Source of the DNA: Bryobacterales bacterium
GTDB taxonomy: Bacteria > Acidobacteriota > Terriglobia > Bryobacterales > Bryobacteraceae
Assembly: GCA_003142185.1 (NCBI GenBank)
Contig: PLOR01000037.1
Coordinates: 1-51,846, forward strand
DNA length: 51,846 nt
Reading direction: 5' to 3'
How positions within the stretch are numbered: position 1 is the first letter of the stretch; every line of letters starts with the position of its first letter. Positions 4,991-48,795 of the stretch are shown piece by piece. The position numbers were made by a program, and so were the translations under genes. Below the pieces are notes generated by a model. The model saw nothing but the letters and a program-made list of their open reading frames with translations, did no database searches and was not told the origin of the DNA.

Positions 4991-5386
4991 CTAATTGGTC
5001 AACTGGACTTCGACGCCAAGCTGCGGTCCCGGCGGGAAGTTGCGACCCTGGGTGCGAAATTCGTACCGCTCGATGGCGACTGCGGCGCTTCTCTCGTTGC
5101 TGCGGACTACGCATCCGTAGATCATGAGCTTCATCGGGCAGTTGTCATTGAGCAGGACCGGCCACGTCATCGAGAGTTCGACCGGCATGCCGGTGGTGAG
5201 CATACTTTCCGTGGAAAACCAGACGCCGCCGCTGGAGATGTTCATCGTTTTGCCGTTTCCAGTCTCGGCAATCCGTTGACCGTAAAGCATCTTGTAGCGG
5301 ACTTCCTGTTCGATCTGGAAACGCCGCTTGTTGCGTCTTTCGCGCTCGCTGTTTCGCAATAAACTGTCGTCCTGTATCTCGATCAC
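4991..5386 (-). CDS. PilZ domain protein
   Basis: This 131-residue protein contains a PilZ domain. The arginine-rich switch RRNKRRFQIE (residues about 18-27) precedes the MNISSGGVWF motif, the (D/N)xSxxG element that together with RxxxR binds cyclic di-GMP. A beta-barrel pattern follows to the C terminus. It probably acts as a single-domain c-di-GMP receptor influencing motility or exopolysaccharide. The start MIEIQDDSLL at 5386 fits a short N-terminal extension. It has no obvious operon partner. Confidence 0.85.
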   Translation of the reverse strand: MIEIQDDSLLRNSERERRNKRRFQIEQEVRYKMLYGQRIAETGNGKTMNISSGGVWFSTESMLTTGMPVELSMTWPVLLNDNCPMKLMIYGCVVRSNERSAAVAIERYEFRTQGRNFPPGPQLGVEVQLTN

Positions 5387-5621: not shown

Positions 5622-5650
5622 TGGACAAGCAGGTCTTAAATTGCTAATAT
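5622..5650 (+). promoter_or_regulatory. Predicted sigma70-type promoter of sRNA candidate 1
   Basis: TGGACA (5622-5627) is separated by 17 bases from TAATAT (5645-5650), a good -35/-10 pair in an A/T-rich stretch. Transcription would begin near 5657, just before the conserved ACAGACAGC block. Confidence 0.65.
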
Positions 5651-5656
5651 CAATCT

Positions 5657-5745
5657 CACAGACAGCATCCCTGGCGGCGAGTCCCCTCCCGCCGCCAACC
5701 CTCTGAGTGCAAGGCCCCGAGATACCCAGCTCGGGGCCTTTTCAT
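5657..5745 (+). ncRNA. Candidate small RNA, tandem copy 1
   Basis: This is a predicted transcript of about 88 nt with two hairpins. Hairpin 1 has a GGCGGC/GCCGCC stem (5673-5678 with 5691-5696) and a 12-nt loop GAGTCCCCTCCC rich in C. Hairpin 2 is a GC-rich terminator. The block from ACAGACAGC to the terminator is repeated at 5946 with only a few changes. All 24 bases of hairpin 1 are identical. One terminator-stem pair changes from G-C to A-T in a compensatory way. The loop CCCCUCCC is complementary to GGAGG-type Shine-Dalgarno sequences, so a trans-acting regulator is a reasonable inference. I do not recognise a named RNA family. Confidence 0.65.
5711..5744 (+). terminator. Rho-independent terminator of sRNA candidate 1
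   Basis: The stem is GGCCCCGAG (5713-5721) with CTCGGGGCC (5730-5738), flanked by AA on the left and a TTTTCATTT tract on the right. Confidence 0.8.
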
Positions 5746-5907
5746 TTGTCCGGCCAAGTCGGCATCCATCTTTCCCCTATAGGCATTTTTTCACACTACG
5801 TTGAGAGATTCAACGTCGAGAAGGCTTCCCAGAACAAACGATTAGTACTTCTGGAACCAAACTCCACCAGAAAATGGGCTTCTCGCCAGGAAACCTTCAC
5901 TCAGTTG

Positions 5908-5936
5908 TAGACAAACAGATCCGAAATCGTTATTAT
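5908..5936 (+). promoter_or_regulatory. Predicted sigma70-type promoter of sRNA candidate 2
   Basis: TAGACA (5908-5913), a 17-base spacer, then TATTAT (5931-5936). The architecture matches copy 1 although the surrounding sequence differs, which suggests that each copy is transcribed independently. Confidence 0.65.
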
Positions 5937-5944
5937 AGATTCAA

Positions 5945-6034
5945 TACAGACAGCATCCTTGGCGGCGAGTCCCCTCCCGCCGCCACTCTCTGAGTGCAAA
6001 GGCCCCAAGTTACCCAACTTGGGGCCTTCATTAT
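5945..6034 (+). ncRNA. Candidate small RNA, tandem copy 2
   Basis: This is the second copy, 288 bases after the first. The ACAGACAGC block starts at 5946. The GGCGGC/GCCGCC hairpin (5961-5966 with 5979-5984) has an identical loop, then CTCTGAGTGC, then a terminator. In this copy CACTC-TCT-GAGTG (5984-5996) could form an extra small hairpin overlapping hairpin 1. The sequence between the two copies is unrelated, so conservation is confined to the putative RNA. No start codon with a plausible peptide is seen. Confidence 0.65.
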
Positions 6035-6036
6035 TT
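5999..6036 (+). terminator. Terminator of sRNA candidate 2, possibly bidirectional with lptD
   Basis: The stem is GGCCCCAAGTT (6001-6011) with AACTTGGGGCC (6016-6026), an ACCC loop, then TTCATTATTT. On the minus strand the same hairpin follows the lptD stop at 6079 and is trailed by TTT, so it may also end lptD transcription. Confidence 0.75.
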
Positions 6037-6078
6037 CCGGGGTGTTGCGTCTTGAGGGGCCGTCCGCGCTGCCCCCGC

Positions 6079-8688
6079 CTAGAACAGCCGGTCCTGTTTC
6101 TTCAGGTTGCCGAATGTGTTGACATTGGCAATTGAGAACGAAAACATGATTTGGCTTTCGTCGCGGATGCCCGCATTGTAACGGCGGTATTCCACGTTGA
6201 AGCCGCAACAATCGGTATTGTACGTAACCAGCGTGGTGGTGTACTCCACCTTCCCGAGGCGATAGTCGTAAACGGCTTCTACGCCGGCGTTCCAGCCGCG
6301 GTTGTTAGGATCGCCGTACTGCACGCGGGCCCGGTACTGGTTGGCGTAGGGAACCAGCAGCGGATTGGTGTGCACCTCATAGTCGCCGGCCGAGAAAAAG
6401 TACTTTCGCCAATGGTAGTCGACGGCGAAACCGCTATCGACGATGGCGTGGAACCGCGGATCGTAGTCGGCCTGCCAATTCACACCCAGGCCGTTGAGCG
6501 GGCTGGCGCGGAGCGTGGAAACCACCGGAGAATTGCTGCGCGGGCCGAGCAGGAATGCGTAGGCGCTGAGATCGGCGGTGGCCGCGAACAGGTTCGACTG
6601 GCCGGAAACCACCGCCCCGCCGAAGGTCGGGTCGAAGTACTGCTTCTCCTTCAACTCCCAGGTCAGGATCTCCCTGACGGAATCGCCACGCTTGGCATAC
6701 AGACGGTTGGCGAGGGAGAACTCCAGCTCATTGGTGTCGCTCAGCAGGTCGGTTTCGTCGAAGCGGACCACGCGGTCGAAGTCGCTGCCGATGCCGCCGA
6801 CGTAGCGGTAAGTCGCGCGCGGTTCGATGACGTGCTTCACCTTGTCGCCGAAGATGGTCTTCTTATCAAAGACGCGTCCCAGCGACGGAAAAATCAGATC
6901 GAGCGAAAAGTCACGGGCGCTGGTCACGAGCTTGCCGCCCACCACCTGGTAGGCCACATAGCCCACCTGTTGCGAGACTGCGGCGTTTTCGGCCTGGCTC
7001 TGCCCGTAGACGGCCTCATCGATGCCGGCGCTCGGCACCAGGTCGATGTGCCAGAAGTGTAAAGCACTGGTGATGTGCGGGGAAAGTTCGAGCCGCGGCG
7101 TGAACTGCTCGGTGCGGAACGTTTCGTAGAGCGTGTTCCCCTGCGGGCCGCCCAGGTTCAGATCGGAATTGAAGATGGGTTCGGAGCGGGAGAGCAGACC
7201 GGCGGCGGAATAGAATGAAAACCAAATCGGCAGGTTCTTCCAGATCGCGTGGTCGCGGCCGTCGACTTCGACGTCCGGCAGTTTGTGGATGATAACGGCA
7301 TTGGTCACGGCCGGCGTCTGCCCGTTGGCCTCGGTCAACGGCACCTCGGTGCTTTGGAAATTCTCCAGCCGCGCGGTGACGATGTCCACCCGGAAGTTGG
7401 AAAAGTCCTTGCTCACCGAGCCGATGGAATGAACCTCCGAACCAATGGCTTCATTGAAGGATCCCGACCATTCCTGGCGGAAGTCGAAGGAGCTGACATA
7501 GTTGACGTTGGCGGTACCGCTCCAGCCGTGGCCCAGGTCCAGGTGGCCGAGCGCATAGACGTTGAAGCCGGAGTAGTGCTCGCCCGGACTGGTGCCTGGG
7601 ATAACGCCGGTGCGGTCCTGCACGCCATAAAGGATGACATCGAAATCGGTGCCCGGGCGCGGCTTGCCGCGAATGTCCACGTGGTGCGCGAAGGCGGCGG
7701 TGTTGTAATCGAAGAAACGGTAAGCGATGTCGAAGCTGCGGCTGATGGCCCAGTAGTAGCCCAAACCCACCATCGGGCCGCGCTGCGAATGCGCCACCAG
7801 GTTGGGCAGCATAAATCCGCTGTGGCGCGGCCGCTTGGCGAGCGAGTGGTAGAAATAGGGCGTGTAGAAAATCGGTACCTTGCGCAGCAGAAACCGGCTC
7901 CGATAGGCCAGCGCGCGATCTTCAGGAATGATGTCGAATTTCGGGCCGCGCAGCTTCCACCACGGACCCGGTATTTTGCAGTTGGTGATCCAGCCGTCGT
8001 ACAGCAGGTACTTGTCGCCGATGCGCTCGGCCCATTTGCCTTCGAAATGAAACGGGCTGTTGCCGGTCAGGATGCCGCGGCGCACCACCGTTTTGGGCAT
8101 GGATTCGCCGCGCACGTTGTAAAACTTGCCCTTCTGCTCTTCGGTGTTGTACTCCATGCGGTCGCACCAGATCTGCTCGTTCTTTTCGAAGCTATGGTAA
8201 TAGACGTTACCGGTGGCGACCACCTCGTGCGTGTCTTCGTTGAATTCCATTTCGTCGGCCTGCGCCAGCAACGCCTTGCCTTCCAGTTGCACGTTGCCGC
8301 GGCCCTTCTTGACAGGGCCTTCCGACTCCTGATAAACGGCCCAAAAAATCCATTGGGTGAGTTCGAGAGTTTTGTGATCGGGAAGCTGCGGCGCCGTAGC
8401 CTGCGCGGTGTTATCGGCCTTGGCAACCGGGGCGGTGACACCGGTTTGCAGAGCGGCAGCAGGCGGGGCAGGGGAGGGCGGCTGGGCGCTTGCCGTATTG
8501 ACCAACACCAGCCAAGCCAATGCGGTAACTCGAAAAACGCAGGTGAAGCTACACGAATTTCCGTGACAAGAGCCACCTCTTGTGCTAAGAAATGGAATAG
8601 AGCTTGGCGAAAAGGGCCCCAACCACAGACGGTACCACAGAATGCCGGCTAAGGTTCCGGGCGATTCGCGCACAGTGTGAAAGACCAT
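6079..8688 (-). CDS. lptD: LPS-assembly protein LptD
   Basis: This is the outer-membrane beta-barrel protein that inserts lipopolysaccharide at the cell surface. An OstA-like N-terminal periplasmic region is visible around residues 130-240 (AQADEMEFNEDTHEVVATGN, YNTEEQKGKFYNVRGES, GWITNCKIP). A long region of amphipathic strands with aromatic girdle residues follows to the C terminus, including FYTPYFYHSLAKRPRHSGFM, the typical LptD insert. At up to 869 residues it is within the usual range. The start is uncertain. The ATG at 8688 shares its CATG with the divergent gene at 8687 and leaves no promoter. The signal-peptide-like stretch (LAWLVLVNTASAQ) begins near 8520, so a GTG at 8673 or TTG at 8622 may be used. 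Confidence 0.88.
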   Translation of the reverse strand: MVFHTVRESPGTLAGILWYRLWLGPFSPSSIPFLSTRGGSCHGNSCSFTCVFRVTALAWLVLVNTASAQPPSPAPPAAALQTGVTAPVAKADNTAQATAPQLPDHKTLELTQWIFWAVYQESEGPVKKGRGNVQLEGKALLAQADEMEFNEDTHEVVATGNVYYHSFEKNEQIWCDRMEYNTEEQKGKFYNVRGESMPKTVVRRGILTGNSPFHFEGKWAERIGDKYLLYDGWITNCKIPGPWWKLRGPKFDIIPEDRALAYRSRFLLRKVPIFYTPYFYHSLAKRPRHSGFMLPNLVAHSQRGPMVGLGYYWAISRSFDIAYRFFDYNTAAFAHHVDIRGKPRPGTDFDVILYGVQDRTGVIPGTSPGEHYSGFNVYALGHLDLGHGWSGTANVNYVSSFDFRQEWSGSFNEAIGSEVHSIGSVSKDFSNFRVDIVTARLENFQSTEVPLTEANGQTPAVTNAVIIHKLPDVEVDGRDHAIWKNLPIWFSFYSAAGLLSRSEPIFNSDLNLGGPQGNTLYETFRTEQFTPRLELSPHITSALHFWHIDLVPSAGIDEAVYGQSQAENAAVSQQVGYVAYQVVGGKLVTSARDFSLDLIFPSLGRVFDKKTIFGDKVKHVIEPRATYRYVGGIGSDFDRVVRFDETDLLSDTNELEFSLANRLYAKRGDSVREILTWELKEKQYFDPTFGGAVVSGQSNLFAATADLSAYAFLLGPRSNSPVVSTLRASPLNGLGVNWQADYDPRFHAIVDSGFAVDYHWRKYFFSAGDYEVHTNPLLVPYANQYRARVQYGDPNNRGWNAGVEAVYDYRLGKVEYTTTLVTYNTDCCGFNVEYRRYNAGIRDESQIMFSFSIANVNTFGNLKKQDRLF

Positions 8689-46380: not shown

Positions 46381-46414
46381 GTCATGAATTAGTGTACACT
46401 CGAAAAGTATCTGA

Positions 46415-46575
46415 TTGTCCGCTGGTGTACGGGAAGCCGGTGCAAATCCGGCGTGGCCCAGCCACTGTAAGCGCGGAGAATCGCCCCTAGTGAGTCACTG
46501 TTCCAGCGATGGAATGGGAAGGCTGGGCGATTCGACGATGCGCAAACCAGGAGACCGGCCAGCGAGATTGTTTAC
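46415..46575 (+). promoter_or_regulatory. Cobalamin (AdoCbl) riboswitch
   Basis: The conserved B12-riboswitch elements appear in order: GGGAAGCCGGTGCAAATCCG (from 46431), GCCACTGTAAGCG (the invariant region, 46461-46473), TGAGTCACTG (46491-46500), GGGAAGG (46516-46522) and ACCAGGAGACCGGCC (46546-46560). It lies directly upstream of the btuB-like gene and should shut the operon down when adenosylcobalamin is plentiful. Confidence 0.95.
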
Positions 46576-46579
46576 CTTC

Positions 46580-46602: not shown

Positions 46603-48795
46603 ATGTATATACGTCTCCAGGGCCTTGCGGCCTTGCTCTTGCTCTTTTCCGCCGGCCTTCCGGCTGCTTCGTTGAAAGGCACGGTTGCCGATCCGTCCGG
46701 CGCTCCCGTCGTGGGCGCCCAGGTCGCTGTGTCGGTCCCCGCCGGAATCGCCGCCCGCACGCTGACCGGTGTCAACGGCTCGTTCGAGCTCGATACCGCT
46801 GTTGCCAATGCGCCCGATGCCAAACTCGTGGTTGCCGCGCCCGGATTCCGCACCGCCGAAATCGCTCTCGCCGCCGCATCGCAGCCCCTGCTCGTGAAGC
46901 TGGAACTGGCGCCGCTCCAGGATTCGGTGAGCGTGGTCGGCTCCGCCATCGATGTCCCGGCCAGCCAGCAGGGCGGCAGCACCAGCATCGTCACCAGTGA
47001 AGAGATCCGCCAGAGCAACCTGGCGCAGGCCGTCGACCTGCTCCGCTTTCTCCCCGGCATGGCCGTCAGCCAGACCGGATTCACCGGCGGCCTTACCTCG
47101 CTCTATCTGCGCGGCGGCTATGACGATTTCAATCTCGTCGAGATCGACGGCATCCCGGTCAATGGTTTCGGCGGGACCTTCGATTTCGCCCACATTCCGG
47201 CCGAGGAACTGGACCGCGTCGAGGTGATTCGCGGTCCCGAATCCGCCGTCGCCGGCGAGTACGCCAACTCGGGCGTGGTCAACTTCGTCACCCGCGAAGC
47301 CGGCGGCGCACCCAACCTCGATATCCTCGCCGAAGGCGGCACTTACCAGGAGCGTCGCTTCGGCATCGCTGGCGGCGACACTCTGGCCGGGTTCGGCATC
47401 TCCTTCGCGGCTTCGCGCCTCGACGATAACGGCCCGGTGCCCAACAGCGACTATCGCAATGAGAACCTGATGCTCAACCTTCTACGCCGTTTCGGCAGCC
47501 AGTCGCTGAACTTCCATGGCGACTTCGATTCCAACACCGTCGGCGAGCCCGGCCCCTATGGCTCCGATCCCAATAACAACTACGCAGGCATCGACACCGT
47601 CAGCCGCAGCAAGAACAACTCTTCCGATTACCTGGCTCATTACCAGGCGGACCTGTTCTCGGGCCGCATCAAGGAGGACTTGTTCGCCTCGTTCTTCCTC
47701 AACAACAACGGCTACACCAGCCCCTACGGGTTCAGCTTCAACAAGGATCTTCGCGGCCAGGCCGAATGGCGCATGACCGCCAGCGTCAAGCCTTGGTACA
47801 CGGTGGCCTTGGGCACGGTTGAGACCATCGAGGAAGTGCGCAACACTTACATCACCGATGCGAGCTCCGACACCTTCCCTATCCGCCGCAACGATCTCGC
47901 GTTCTACCTCGAGAACCGTTTTCAACTGCCCGGCGGCTGGTCGATTAACGCTGGCGTGCGCGGCGAGTTTGTGAGCACCGGCGCCATTCCGACCGATGGC
48001 TATTCGCGTCCGGTCTTTCCGGCGCAGTCCGTCAGCGCCGTCGATCCCAAGGTGGCCGCCGCGTACACGCGGGGCGGCACGCGGCTGCACGCTTCCTTCG
48101 GCACCGGCTTTCGCCCACCCACCGGCTTCGACCTGGCTTACACCGACAATCCGTCGCTCAAGCCGGAGCGCACGCGCGGCTTCGACGCGGGTGTGGAGCA
48201 CCGCTTTTTCCACGACATTCTCTCGCTCGACGCCACCTTCTTCGACAACCGCTACTACGACCTGATCGTCATTCTGGGTGGCAATCTCTCCGTGCTCAGC
48301 CACTATGAATCCGACAACATCGCCAACGCGCGCGGCCTGGGCACCGAATACTCCGCCCGCCTGCGGCCCGCCCGCTGGTTTTACATCACCGGCTGGTACA
48401 CCTGGCTCGATTCGGAAATTCTTTCGCTCAACGGCACCGCCAACCTGGCGCCGGCGCCGTTTACAGTGGGCCAGCAGTTGCTGCGCCGCCCGGCGAATTC
48501 GGGCGCTTTCGCCGCTACCTTCACGCGCGGACGCGTCTCGGGCGGCCTGGACGGCTACTTCCGCGGTTCCATTCTAGATGTCGATCCAAGCTACGGCGCA
48601 TCCGCCGGCTTGTTTCAAAACCCCGGCTATGCCAACTTGGGGCTGAATCTCAACTACAAGCTCGGCCGCGGCCTCACCGCCTACGGCAACCTGCGCAACG
48701 CGCTCGACCAGCATTACGAAGAGGTGTTCGGCTACCCTTCGCCGCGCCTGAATTTCGTGACCGGTTTGAAATGGTCGTTCGCGGGAGCAAAATGA
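46603..48795 (+). CDS. btuB: TonB-dependent outer-membrane receptor, BtuB-like
   Basis: This is a 730-residue receptor. The signal peptide (1-22, LQGLAALLLLFSAGLPAA) is followed by a carboxypeptidase-regulatory-like domain (about 24-105), common in Acidobacteriota and Bacteroidota. The plug domain (about 110-225) has IVTSEEIRQSNLAQAVDLLR, GGLTSLYLRGG and AEELDRVEVIRGPESAV. A 22-strand barrel follows to the C terminus (ending FVTGLKWSFAGAK). The riboswitch upstream and adenosyltransferase downstream point to cobalamin uptake. It would need TonB/ExbBD encoded elsewhere. The ribosome-binding site AGGGAGG precedes the start. Confidence 0.9.
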   Translation: MYIRLQGLAALLLLFSAGLPAASLKGTVADPSGAPVVGAQVAVSVPAGIAARTLTGVNGSFELDTAVANAPDAKLVVAAPGFRTAEIALAAASQPLLVKLELAPLQDSVSVVGSAIDVPASQQGGSTSIVTSEEIRQSNLAQAVDLLRFLPGMAVSQTGFTGGLTSLYLRGGYDDFNLVEIDGIPVNGFGGTFDFAHIPAEELDRVEVIRGPESAVAGEYANSGVVNFVTREAGGAPNLDILAEGGTYQERRFGIAGGDTLAGFGISFAASRLDDNGPVPNSDYRNENLMLNLLRRFGSQSLNFHGDFDSNTVGEPGPYGSDPNNNYAGIDTVSRSKNNSSDYLAHYQADLFSGRIKEDLFASFFLNNNGYTSPYGFSFNKDLRGQAEWRMTASVKPWYTVALGTVETIEEVRNTYITDASSDTFPIRRNDLAFYLENRFQLPGGWSINAGVRGEFVSTGAIPTDGYSRPVFPAQSVSAVDPKVAAAYTRGGTRLHASFGTGFRPPTGFDLAYTDNPSLKPERTRGFDAGVEHRFFHDILSLDATFFDNRYYDLIVILGGNLSVLSHYESDNIANARGLGTEYSARLRPARWFYITGWYTWLDSEILSLNGTANLAPAPFTVGQQLLRRPANSGAFAATFTRGRVSGGLDGYFRGSILDVDPSYGASAGLFQNPGYANLGLNLNYKLGRGLTAYGNLRNALDQHYEEVFGYPSPRLNFVTGLKWSFAGAK

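What the first reader, a model, noticed from the sequence alone, without database searches (positions are those of the whole stretch)
5622..6036. Tandem pair of near-identical small RNAs with an invariant anti-Shine-Dalgarno-like loop
Two ~88-nt units 288 bases apart each have a sigma70-type promoter (TGGACA-17-TAATAT; TAGACA-17-TATTAT), a GGCGGC/GCCGCC hairpin with loop GAGTCCCCTCCC, and a terminator. The sequence between them is unrelated. Hairpin 1 is 100% conserved, while the terminator stem shows a compensatory G-C to A-T pair. The C-rich loop could pair with GGAGG ribosome-binding sites, as in homologous sRNA families with CCUCC loops (for example the tandem CcsR RNAs of Rhodobacter). 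No coding potential is seen.
Basis: partly seen in the sequence, partly recalled or inferred. Interest (0 to 1): 0.78.

Follow-up and report, generated by a model that had tools for sequence, protein, structure and literature searches.

The report
Acido-1 small RNA pair, strand corrected
The two repeats are a side-by-side pair of a catalogued but little-studied acidobacterial RNA (Acido-1); comparison with relatives indicates that the catalogue lists the wrong DNA strand and that the RNA is a promoter-driven, C-rich small RNA, possibly a regulator of protein synthesis, with unrecognised relatives in many genera of the same bacterial family.

Summary
In detail: two 88-nt units 288 nt apart, each with a 17-nt-spaced sigma70-like promoter, a GGCGGC hairpin with a C-rich loop and a terminator, on the plus strand. 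They are not new: both pass Rfam's cut-off for Acido-1, RF01686 (75.0, 71.4 bits), but on the MINUS strand. One conserved A.C pair, which would be G.U on Rfam's strand, and a more stable raw fold speak the other way. A model of diverged siblings, built without the window, recovers both units on plus (1.0e-18, 8.7e-15) and matches 101 of 200 family genomes. Siblings lack the CCCCUCCC loop but keep a C-rich 5' stretch, a CCCAG loop and a CCCCUC linker; many with a 5' AAGUC hairpin have sigma54-like promoters. Best reading: a trans-acting C-rich sRNA pairing with G-rich ribosome-binding sites. No targets are shown, a crude seed test found no enrichment, and one natural copy lacks the loop hairpin altogether.

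The parts
5622..5650 (+). promoter of unit 1: TGGACA (5622-5627), 17-nt spacer, TAATAT (5645-5650), extended -10 TG
   Evidence: same layout in 59 relatives: T[AG]GACAA..AGRTCYG.AAA..TGCTA (the TNGAC part was the anchor)
5657..5744 (+). unit 1, predicted transcript of about 88 nt (start inferred from the -10 box, not mapped)
   Evidence: Rfam RF01686 75.0 bits on - strand; sibling model R2 1.0e-18 on + strand
5658..5670 (+). conserved 5' segment ACAGACAGCAUCC
   Evidence: alignment A1
5673..5696 (+). hairpin 1, GGCGGCG/CGCCGCC stem, C-rich loop AGUCCCCUCC
   Evidence: covarying stem; UCCCCUCC mean unpaired 0.86
5701..5710 (+). conserved linker CUCUGAGUGC
   Evidence: only partly unpaired in the predicted ensemble, 0.48
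5711..5750 (+). intrinsic terminator of unit 1, loop with UACCCAG, U-rich tail
5908..5936 (+). promoter of unit 2: TAGACA (5908-5913), 17 nt, TATTAT (5931-5936)
5945..6032 (+). unit 2, predicted transcript of about 88 nt
   Evidence: RF01686 71.4 bits on - strand; R2 8.7e-15 on + strand
5961..5984 (+). hairpin 1 of unit 2, identical to unit 1
5999..6038 (+). intrinsic terminator of unit 2
4991..5386 (-). flanking gene, PilZ-like (below Pfam's cut-off: 21.7 of 22.5 bits)
   Evidence: a relative found in the fetched flanks of 10 of 36 Acido-1 loci, always on the other strand
6079..8688 (-). flanking gene lptD (LPS assembly), converging on the sRNAs
   Evidence: PF04453 51.4 bits; found in the fetched flanks of 7 of 36 Acido-1 loci, always on the other strand, and beside one sigma54-type sibling, L147

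Best explanation
The two units are Acido-1 RNAs, transcribed from the plus strand (opposite to Rfam's model), each from its own sigma70-like promoter to its own terminator. They belong to a wider class of C-rich small RNAs of one acidobacterial family (Bryobacteraceae, judged from named relatives) that present several C-rich stretches: CAUCC(C), a hairpin loop (UCCCCUCC in Acido-1, CCCAG in most siblings), the linker (C)CCCUCUGA and the terminator loop (often ACCCAG). Inferred mechanism: these stretches pair with G-rich ribosome-binding regions of several mRNAs, perhaps with the help of the genome's Hfq, and block translation; tandem copies raise the dose or divide the targets. Supported here by computation: membership, strand, promoter, terminator, covarying stems, distribution. 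Inferred only: transcription in the cell, transcript ends, Hfq binding, targets, repression.
For: Both units pass Rfam's Acido-1 cut-off. Covariation: 10 of 17 pairs changed on both sides, 46 cells, 0 of 500 shuffles as high. Sibling model R2, built without the window, finds both units on +, and Acido-1 model R1 finds siblings. C-rich stretches are mostly unpaired, save the linker. Hfq in the genome (94.3 bits). Works-alikes with tested SD pairing: LhrC, three redundant CU-rich sites in a stem-loop, single strand and terminator loop, five near-identical copies (PMC4132741, passages); NmsR tandem siblings (PMC5362039, passages).
Against: No transcript data. One A.C mismatch near the loop, in all 59 rows of A1 (where my pattern fixed it) and in all 64 Acido-1 rows with a hairpin found by model, would be a G.U pair on Rfam's strand. 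No target signal: GGGAGGGG-N2-11-ATG 10 against 8 for the control; the only other perfect 11-nt complement is inside a coding frame. The CCCCUCCC loop is absent from siblings (0 of 37 with CCUCC), and one natural copy beside an intact one (L024, 1671-1739) lacks the whole hairpin while keeping promoter, 5' segment, linker and terminator. The linker is only partly unpaired in the predicted fold (0.48, 0.35).
Confidence: 0.6

Rival explanations
1. Rfam's strand is right: the RNA is read from the minus strand, with an exposed GGGAGGGG loop, as a G-rich RNA or part of a 3' region of a neighbouring gene.
For: Rfam's orientation; the conserved A.C column becomes G.U on that strand; lower raw folding energy.
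Against: No promoter signal above shuffles on that strand (5.12 against 5.18); less T after either hairpin than after the terminator of the other strand; the 35 G.U pairs would become A.C mismatches; lptD was found beside only 7 of 36 loci, within limited flanks.
Confidence: 0.07
2. The RNA acts by sequestering a protein that binds C-rich single strands (a CsrB-like sponge with CCC motifs in place of GGA), not by pairing with mRNAs.
For: Repeated CCC motifs in loops and linker on stems that covary; tandem arrays of up to four copies; no target enrichment; a copy without hairpin 1 keeps other C-rich stretches.
Against: No such C-binding protein was looked for or found; the conserved stretches are longer than a short protein motif would need; Hfq present.
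Confidence: 0.15
3. The C-rich loop mimics the 16S anti-SD so broadly that the RNA is a general modulator of initiation, not a regulator with specific targets.
For: Loop contains CCUCC; the seed test shows no specific excess (10 places against 8 for the control).
Against: The 5' segment and linker are also highly conserved and siblings lack CCUCC in the loop (0 of 37).
Confidence: 0.12

Closest known systems
Acido-1 RNA, Rfam RF01686 (Weinberg et al. 2010, PMC2864571, passages seen)
   Same: Both units exceed the gathering score; same two hairpins, linker and loop; Acidobacteria; marked y (RNA), n (cis-regulatory), n (switch) in the paper's table
   Different: Rfam models the opposite strand; promoter, tandem order, siblings and sigma54-type promoters were not in the passages seen (its supplements could not be read)
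LhrC1-5 of Listeria (PMC4132741, passages seen)
   Same: Multicopy; [quoted passage not shown] SD pairing
   Different: No sequence homology tested or claimed; UCCC motifs; a target proven there, none here
NmsR siblings of Neisseria (PMC5362039, passages seen)
   Same: Tandem structurally similar sRNAs with own promoters and UC-rich anti-SD stretches between and in stem-loops
   Different: Different phylum; 70% identity to each other; proven targets and RelA control
Cuckoo / alpha-r14 (NfeR1, PMC10746234) and CcsR (PMC10253847), passages seen
   Same: aSD-like motif in hairpin loops; CcsR in clusters
   Different: Motif CCUCCUCCC in each hairpin (alpha-r14); CcsR is cut from one transcript with a DUF1127 gene; no Rfam match above cut-off here

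Membership tests
Acido-1 (RF01686) | covariance-model score at or above gathering (50 bits) | tested here: met
   75.0 and 71.4 bits
Acido-1 (RF01686) | found in Acidobacteria | tested here: met
   35 named stretches match the loop pattern; 32 show the RNA and bear acidobacterial names, three (L046 Solirubrobacterales, L047 Microbispora, L062 Bryobacterales) lack its context and look like chance.
Acido-1 (RF01686) | transcribed strand as modelled by Rfam | tested here: not met
   promoter, U-tail and wobble evidence put the transcript on the other strand; indirect, transcript itself not measured
Cuckoo / alpha-r14 / CcsR | CCUCCUCCC in each hairpin loop | tested here: not met
   one loop CCCCUCCC, terminator loop UACCCA
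Cuckoo / alpha-r14 / CcsR | Rfam score for such families | tested here: not met
   ar7 22.3 of 60 bits, anti-hemB 15.2 of 49.5 bits, none above cut-off
Cuckoo / CcsR | neighbouring DUF1127 gene (CIN1 locus) | tested here: inconclusive
   the two nearest window genes are PilZ-like and LptD; wider surroundings and other loci were not searched for DUF1127
C-rich SD-blocking sRNAs (LhrC type; a functional class, not a homologous family) | several unpaired C-rich stretches | tested here: met
   predicted mean unpaired GCATCC 0.78-0.81, TCCCCTCC 0.85-0.86, TACCCA 0.74-0.99; linker only 0.35-0.48
C-rich SD-blocking sRNAs (LhrC type; a functional class, not a homologous family) | pairs with target ribosome-binding sites | tested here: inconclusive
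   no enrichment of GGGAGGGG before ATG (10 against 8); needs experiment

The most novel reading that the evidence does not exclude
Acido-1 is the lineage-specific form of a family-wide regulatory RNA of Bryobacteraceae that sequesters an unknown C-motif-binding protein (a CCC counterpart of the CsrB/GGA sponges), and whose control has switched between sigma70 and sigma54 promoters while the RNA core was kept.
Probability: 0.1. Interest if true: 0.82.

Novelty: new member of a known kind. Interest (0 to 1): 0.5.

Why it matters
Acido-1 was submitted to Rfam with the 2010 paper, and I found no functional study of it. If the listed strand is wrong, anyone who annotates genomes or counts RNA-seq reads with it looks at the wrong strand. 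The corrected strand turns it into a testable, promoter-driven C-rich sRNA, with relatives in about half of the family genomes examined and a sigma70/sigma54 promoter split. Among the titles listed by my searches on acidobacterial small RNAs (only part of the hits is listed) I saw no experimental study of such RNAs in this phylum.

Tried and rejected
Mobile palindrome: rejected, two copies only. Homology to cuckoo/CcsR RNAs: weak Rfam matches far below cut-off. Perfect-complement targets: none convincing. Shared promoter element elsewhere in the genome: the strict pattern occurs once, at unit 1. Wider distribution: RF01686 over 396 genomes of the phylum sample gave one genome above cut-off, the own one, and one other at E<=0.001 (30 bits, L124, looks like chance); R2 over the 396 gave 8 genomes at E<=0.01, the seven others at 20-25 bits. 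Both searches use stricter filters that lose weak matches, and the sample holds few genomes of the own family. An outer stem of the 5' CAGA with UCUG of the linker appears in the folds, but both sides hardly vary and siblings lack the 5' side, so it is unsupported.

Counts that differ by method: the first wobble count (free helix search) gave siblings 10 G.U against 30 A.C in hairpin 1, which I put down to the search running past the stem end; fixed columns gave 21 against 0. In siblings' terminators, counted only by the free search, it was 19 against 8. In Acido-1 the free search gave hairpin 7 against 63 (the conserved column) and terminator 14 against 1; fixed columns 7 against 0 (plus 59 in that column) and 7 against 2.

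Selection: Acido-1 copies for A1 were picked by a pattern that fixes GAG..TCCC of the loop and TCTGAGT of the linker, and siblings for A2 by patterns that fix GCATC and CCCCTC, so the invariance of those letters there is by construction; the promoter logo was anchored on TNGAC. A model-based rescan of 43 sources (74 matches, 66 distinct rows) found one sibling (L033) and one hairpin-less copy (L024) besides; the sources themselves were still chosen by Rfam or by the loop pattern.

Rows left out: 3 of 63 Acido-1 copies cut by contig ends and one identical core merged, leaving 59; one duplicate Acido-1 copy removed from 38 siblings, leaving 37; sibling-like weak hits L070, L074 and L108, not caught by my patterns, are not in A2; one chance match of 16.7 bits and the two window units set aside from the 28, leaving 25; of these 7 without GCATC were left out of the promoter count. 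Of 55 weak RF01686 loci (L070-L124), by eye 37 are siblings, one (L071) is Acido-1-like and 17 look like chance.

Full report
What is there. The window holds two near-identical units 288 nt apart in the 692-nt gap between a PilZ-like gene (4991-5386, minus; 21.7 bits, just under Pfam's cut-off) and lptD (6079-8688, minus). Each has a sigma70-like promoter with a 17-nt spacer, a conserved ACAGACAGCAUCC, a GC-rich hairpin with a C-rich loop, the linker CUCUGAGUGC and a terminator, all on the plus strand. The scan found two promoters where shuffles give 0.3, and three terminator-like sites where shuffles give 1.2, one of them on the minus strand between the units. Both units fold far better than shuffles (z -5.5, -6.5). 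No other copy was found in the assembly.

What it is called. cmscan places both units in Rfam's Acido-1 (RF01686; 75.0 and 71.4 bits, cut-off 50), on the minus strand. Acido-1 comes from Weinberg et al. 2010 (PMC2864571), whose table, in the passages I saw, marks it y for RNA, n for cis-regulatory and n for switch, in Acidobacteria. A search for 'Acido-1' in the open-licence library listed 5 papers, and 'RF01686' only the 2010 paper; of the others I read one passage, a table of computed ncRNA predictions (PMC6337395), and saw three only as listings. I found no functional study; subscription papers and supplements are not covered.

Which strand. RF01686 was searched in 200 genomes of the window's family: 30 have a match above cut-off, 69 at E<=0.1, the weakest of these being chance. 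From these genomes and from 35 named stretches I took 63 Acido-1 copies by a loop-and-linker pattern, 59 after removal of cut or identical ones. Anchored at TNGAC, 59 copies share the layout T[AG]GACAA, a 17-nt spacer with AGRTCYG and AAA, and an extended -10 TGCTA; one further copy, L071, lacks the anchor. My pattern fixed that column, but a rescan by model found the same in all 64 Acido-1 rows with a hairpin, with G.U 16 and A.C 2 elsewhere. Stems covary (10 of 17 pairs, 46 cells, 0 of 500 shuffles as high). I conclude that Rfam very probably models the reverse complement.

The wider class. Of 55 weak RF01686 loci that I fetched (L070-L124, about 22-49 bits) 37 are, by eye, siblings: GCAUCC, a stem with loop CCCAG, a CCCCUC linker and a terminator; many begin with a hairpin AAGUC..GACUU (20 of the 37 rows of A2). 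CCCAG is in the loop of 36 of 37 rows of A2 and 23 of 25 hits found by model R2 in 20 further loci; none of the 37 has CCUCC there. R2, built from the 37 rows of A2 without the window, finds the two units on the plus strand at 1.0e-18 and 8.7e-15; the Acido-1 model R1 finds siblings in turn. R2 matches 101 of 200 family genomes, 46 of 76 genera, at E<=0.01, the four weakest at E 4e-4 to 2e-3, and nothing convincing in 396 genomes across the phylum except the own one. In ten sibling loci scanned against Rfam, four have sub-threshold Acido-1 matches and six none at E<=0.05. One sibling (L147) lies beside lptD as the window's pair does, which suggests positional homology.

Promoters. A -24/-12 element TGGCAC-N5-TTGC (8 or more of 10 positions, GG and GC required) stands 50-58 nt upstream of GCAUC in 21 of 36 siblings with the 5' AAGUC hairpin. 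It is found in 1 of 19 siblings counted as without it (L157, whose 5' end carries a close variant that my pattern missed) and in 1 of 60 Acido-1 copies, there at another distance; shuffles give about 1% or less. A sigma70-like match of 9 or more of 12 is found in 35 of 60 Acido-1 copies (shuffles 15%) and 14 of 19 siblings without the hairpin (13%), but 4 of 36 with it (10%). A sigma54 DNA-binding domain is encoded in 16 of 17 genomes examined, the window's included; the miss is an 88% complete assembly. So the class seems to be under two kinds of promoter control. No activator was looked for.

Arrays. Among 36 distinct Acido-1 loci (67 locus records merged by identical cores; one merge joins two genomes) 16 hold one copy with the loop, 15 two, 3 three and 2 four; copies in an array always share the strand (20 of 20). 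L024 holds a further copy that has promoter, 5' segment, linker and terminator but no hairpin 1. In the ten loci that hold both a CCC-type and a CTC/TTC-type linker the CCC type is upstream, as in the window; L024 agrees, and L021, with a CTT variant third of four, was not counted. Copies of one type in different loci are slightly more alike (0.84, 0.83) than the two types in different loci (0.82) or in one locus (0.80), all +- 0.04-0.05, and the small tree is mixed: compatible with an old, retained duplication, no more. A PilZ-like gene is in the fetched flanks of 10 and lptD of 7 of the 36 loci, 4 with both, always on the opposite strand; flanks were often short, so these are lower bounds.

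How it probably works. The C-rich stretches are mostly unpaired in predicted ensembles (loop 0.85-0.86, 5' segment 0.78-0.81, terminator loop 0.74-0.99), the linker less so (0.35-0.48). The genome encodes Hfq (94.3 bits, and two weaker matches). The architecture resembles LhrC, where three redundant CU-rich sites block a ribosome-binding region (PMC4132741, passages), and the tandem NmsR siblings (PMC5362039, passages). By this analogy I infer translational repression of several mRNAs. My own target tests were negative or blunt: no enrichment of GGGAGGGG before ATG (10 against 8), and the only perfect 11-nt complement elsewhere lies in a frame that I read as a hybrid histidine kinase (no family search). 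The step from sequence to function is therefore open.

Verdict. Ordinary in that the family is catalogued; new, as far as my searches show, in strand, in the sibling class and in the promoter split. 

Noticed in passing
L024 1671-1739 (+): A natural Acido-1 copy beside an intact one has lost hairpin 1 with its C-rich loop but keeps promoter-like sequence, 5' segment, linker and terminator.
   Followed up: partly
window 46406-46577 (+): Cobalamin riboswitch (RF00174, 93.2 bits) followed by a 730-aa frame at 46603-48795; gene not identified.
   Followed up: no
L070, L083, L095, L096, L100, L145, L151, L156, L158: In nine sibling loci related genes lie upstream of the sRNA; the two scanned are adenylate-kinase-type, and in L070 a TIM-barrel gene and an L-lactate permease gene lie next to it.
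   Followed up: partly
Acido-1 promoters, between the -35 and -10 boxes (window 5628-5644, 5914-5930): Spacer carries a near-palindromic CAGRTCYG-like stretch in most of 59 copies, echoed in some sibling promoters; perhaps a regulator site.
   Followed up: partly
L104; L036, L044, L065: Arrays of three to four sRNA copies within one region, in siblings (L104) as well as Acido-1.
   Followed up: partly
G000 C60, C45, C109 (L159-L161): Three Hfq-type matches in one genome (94.3, 28.9, 27.6 bits); the two weak ones were not examined.
   Followed up: no
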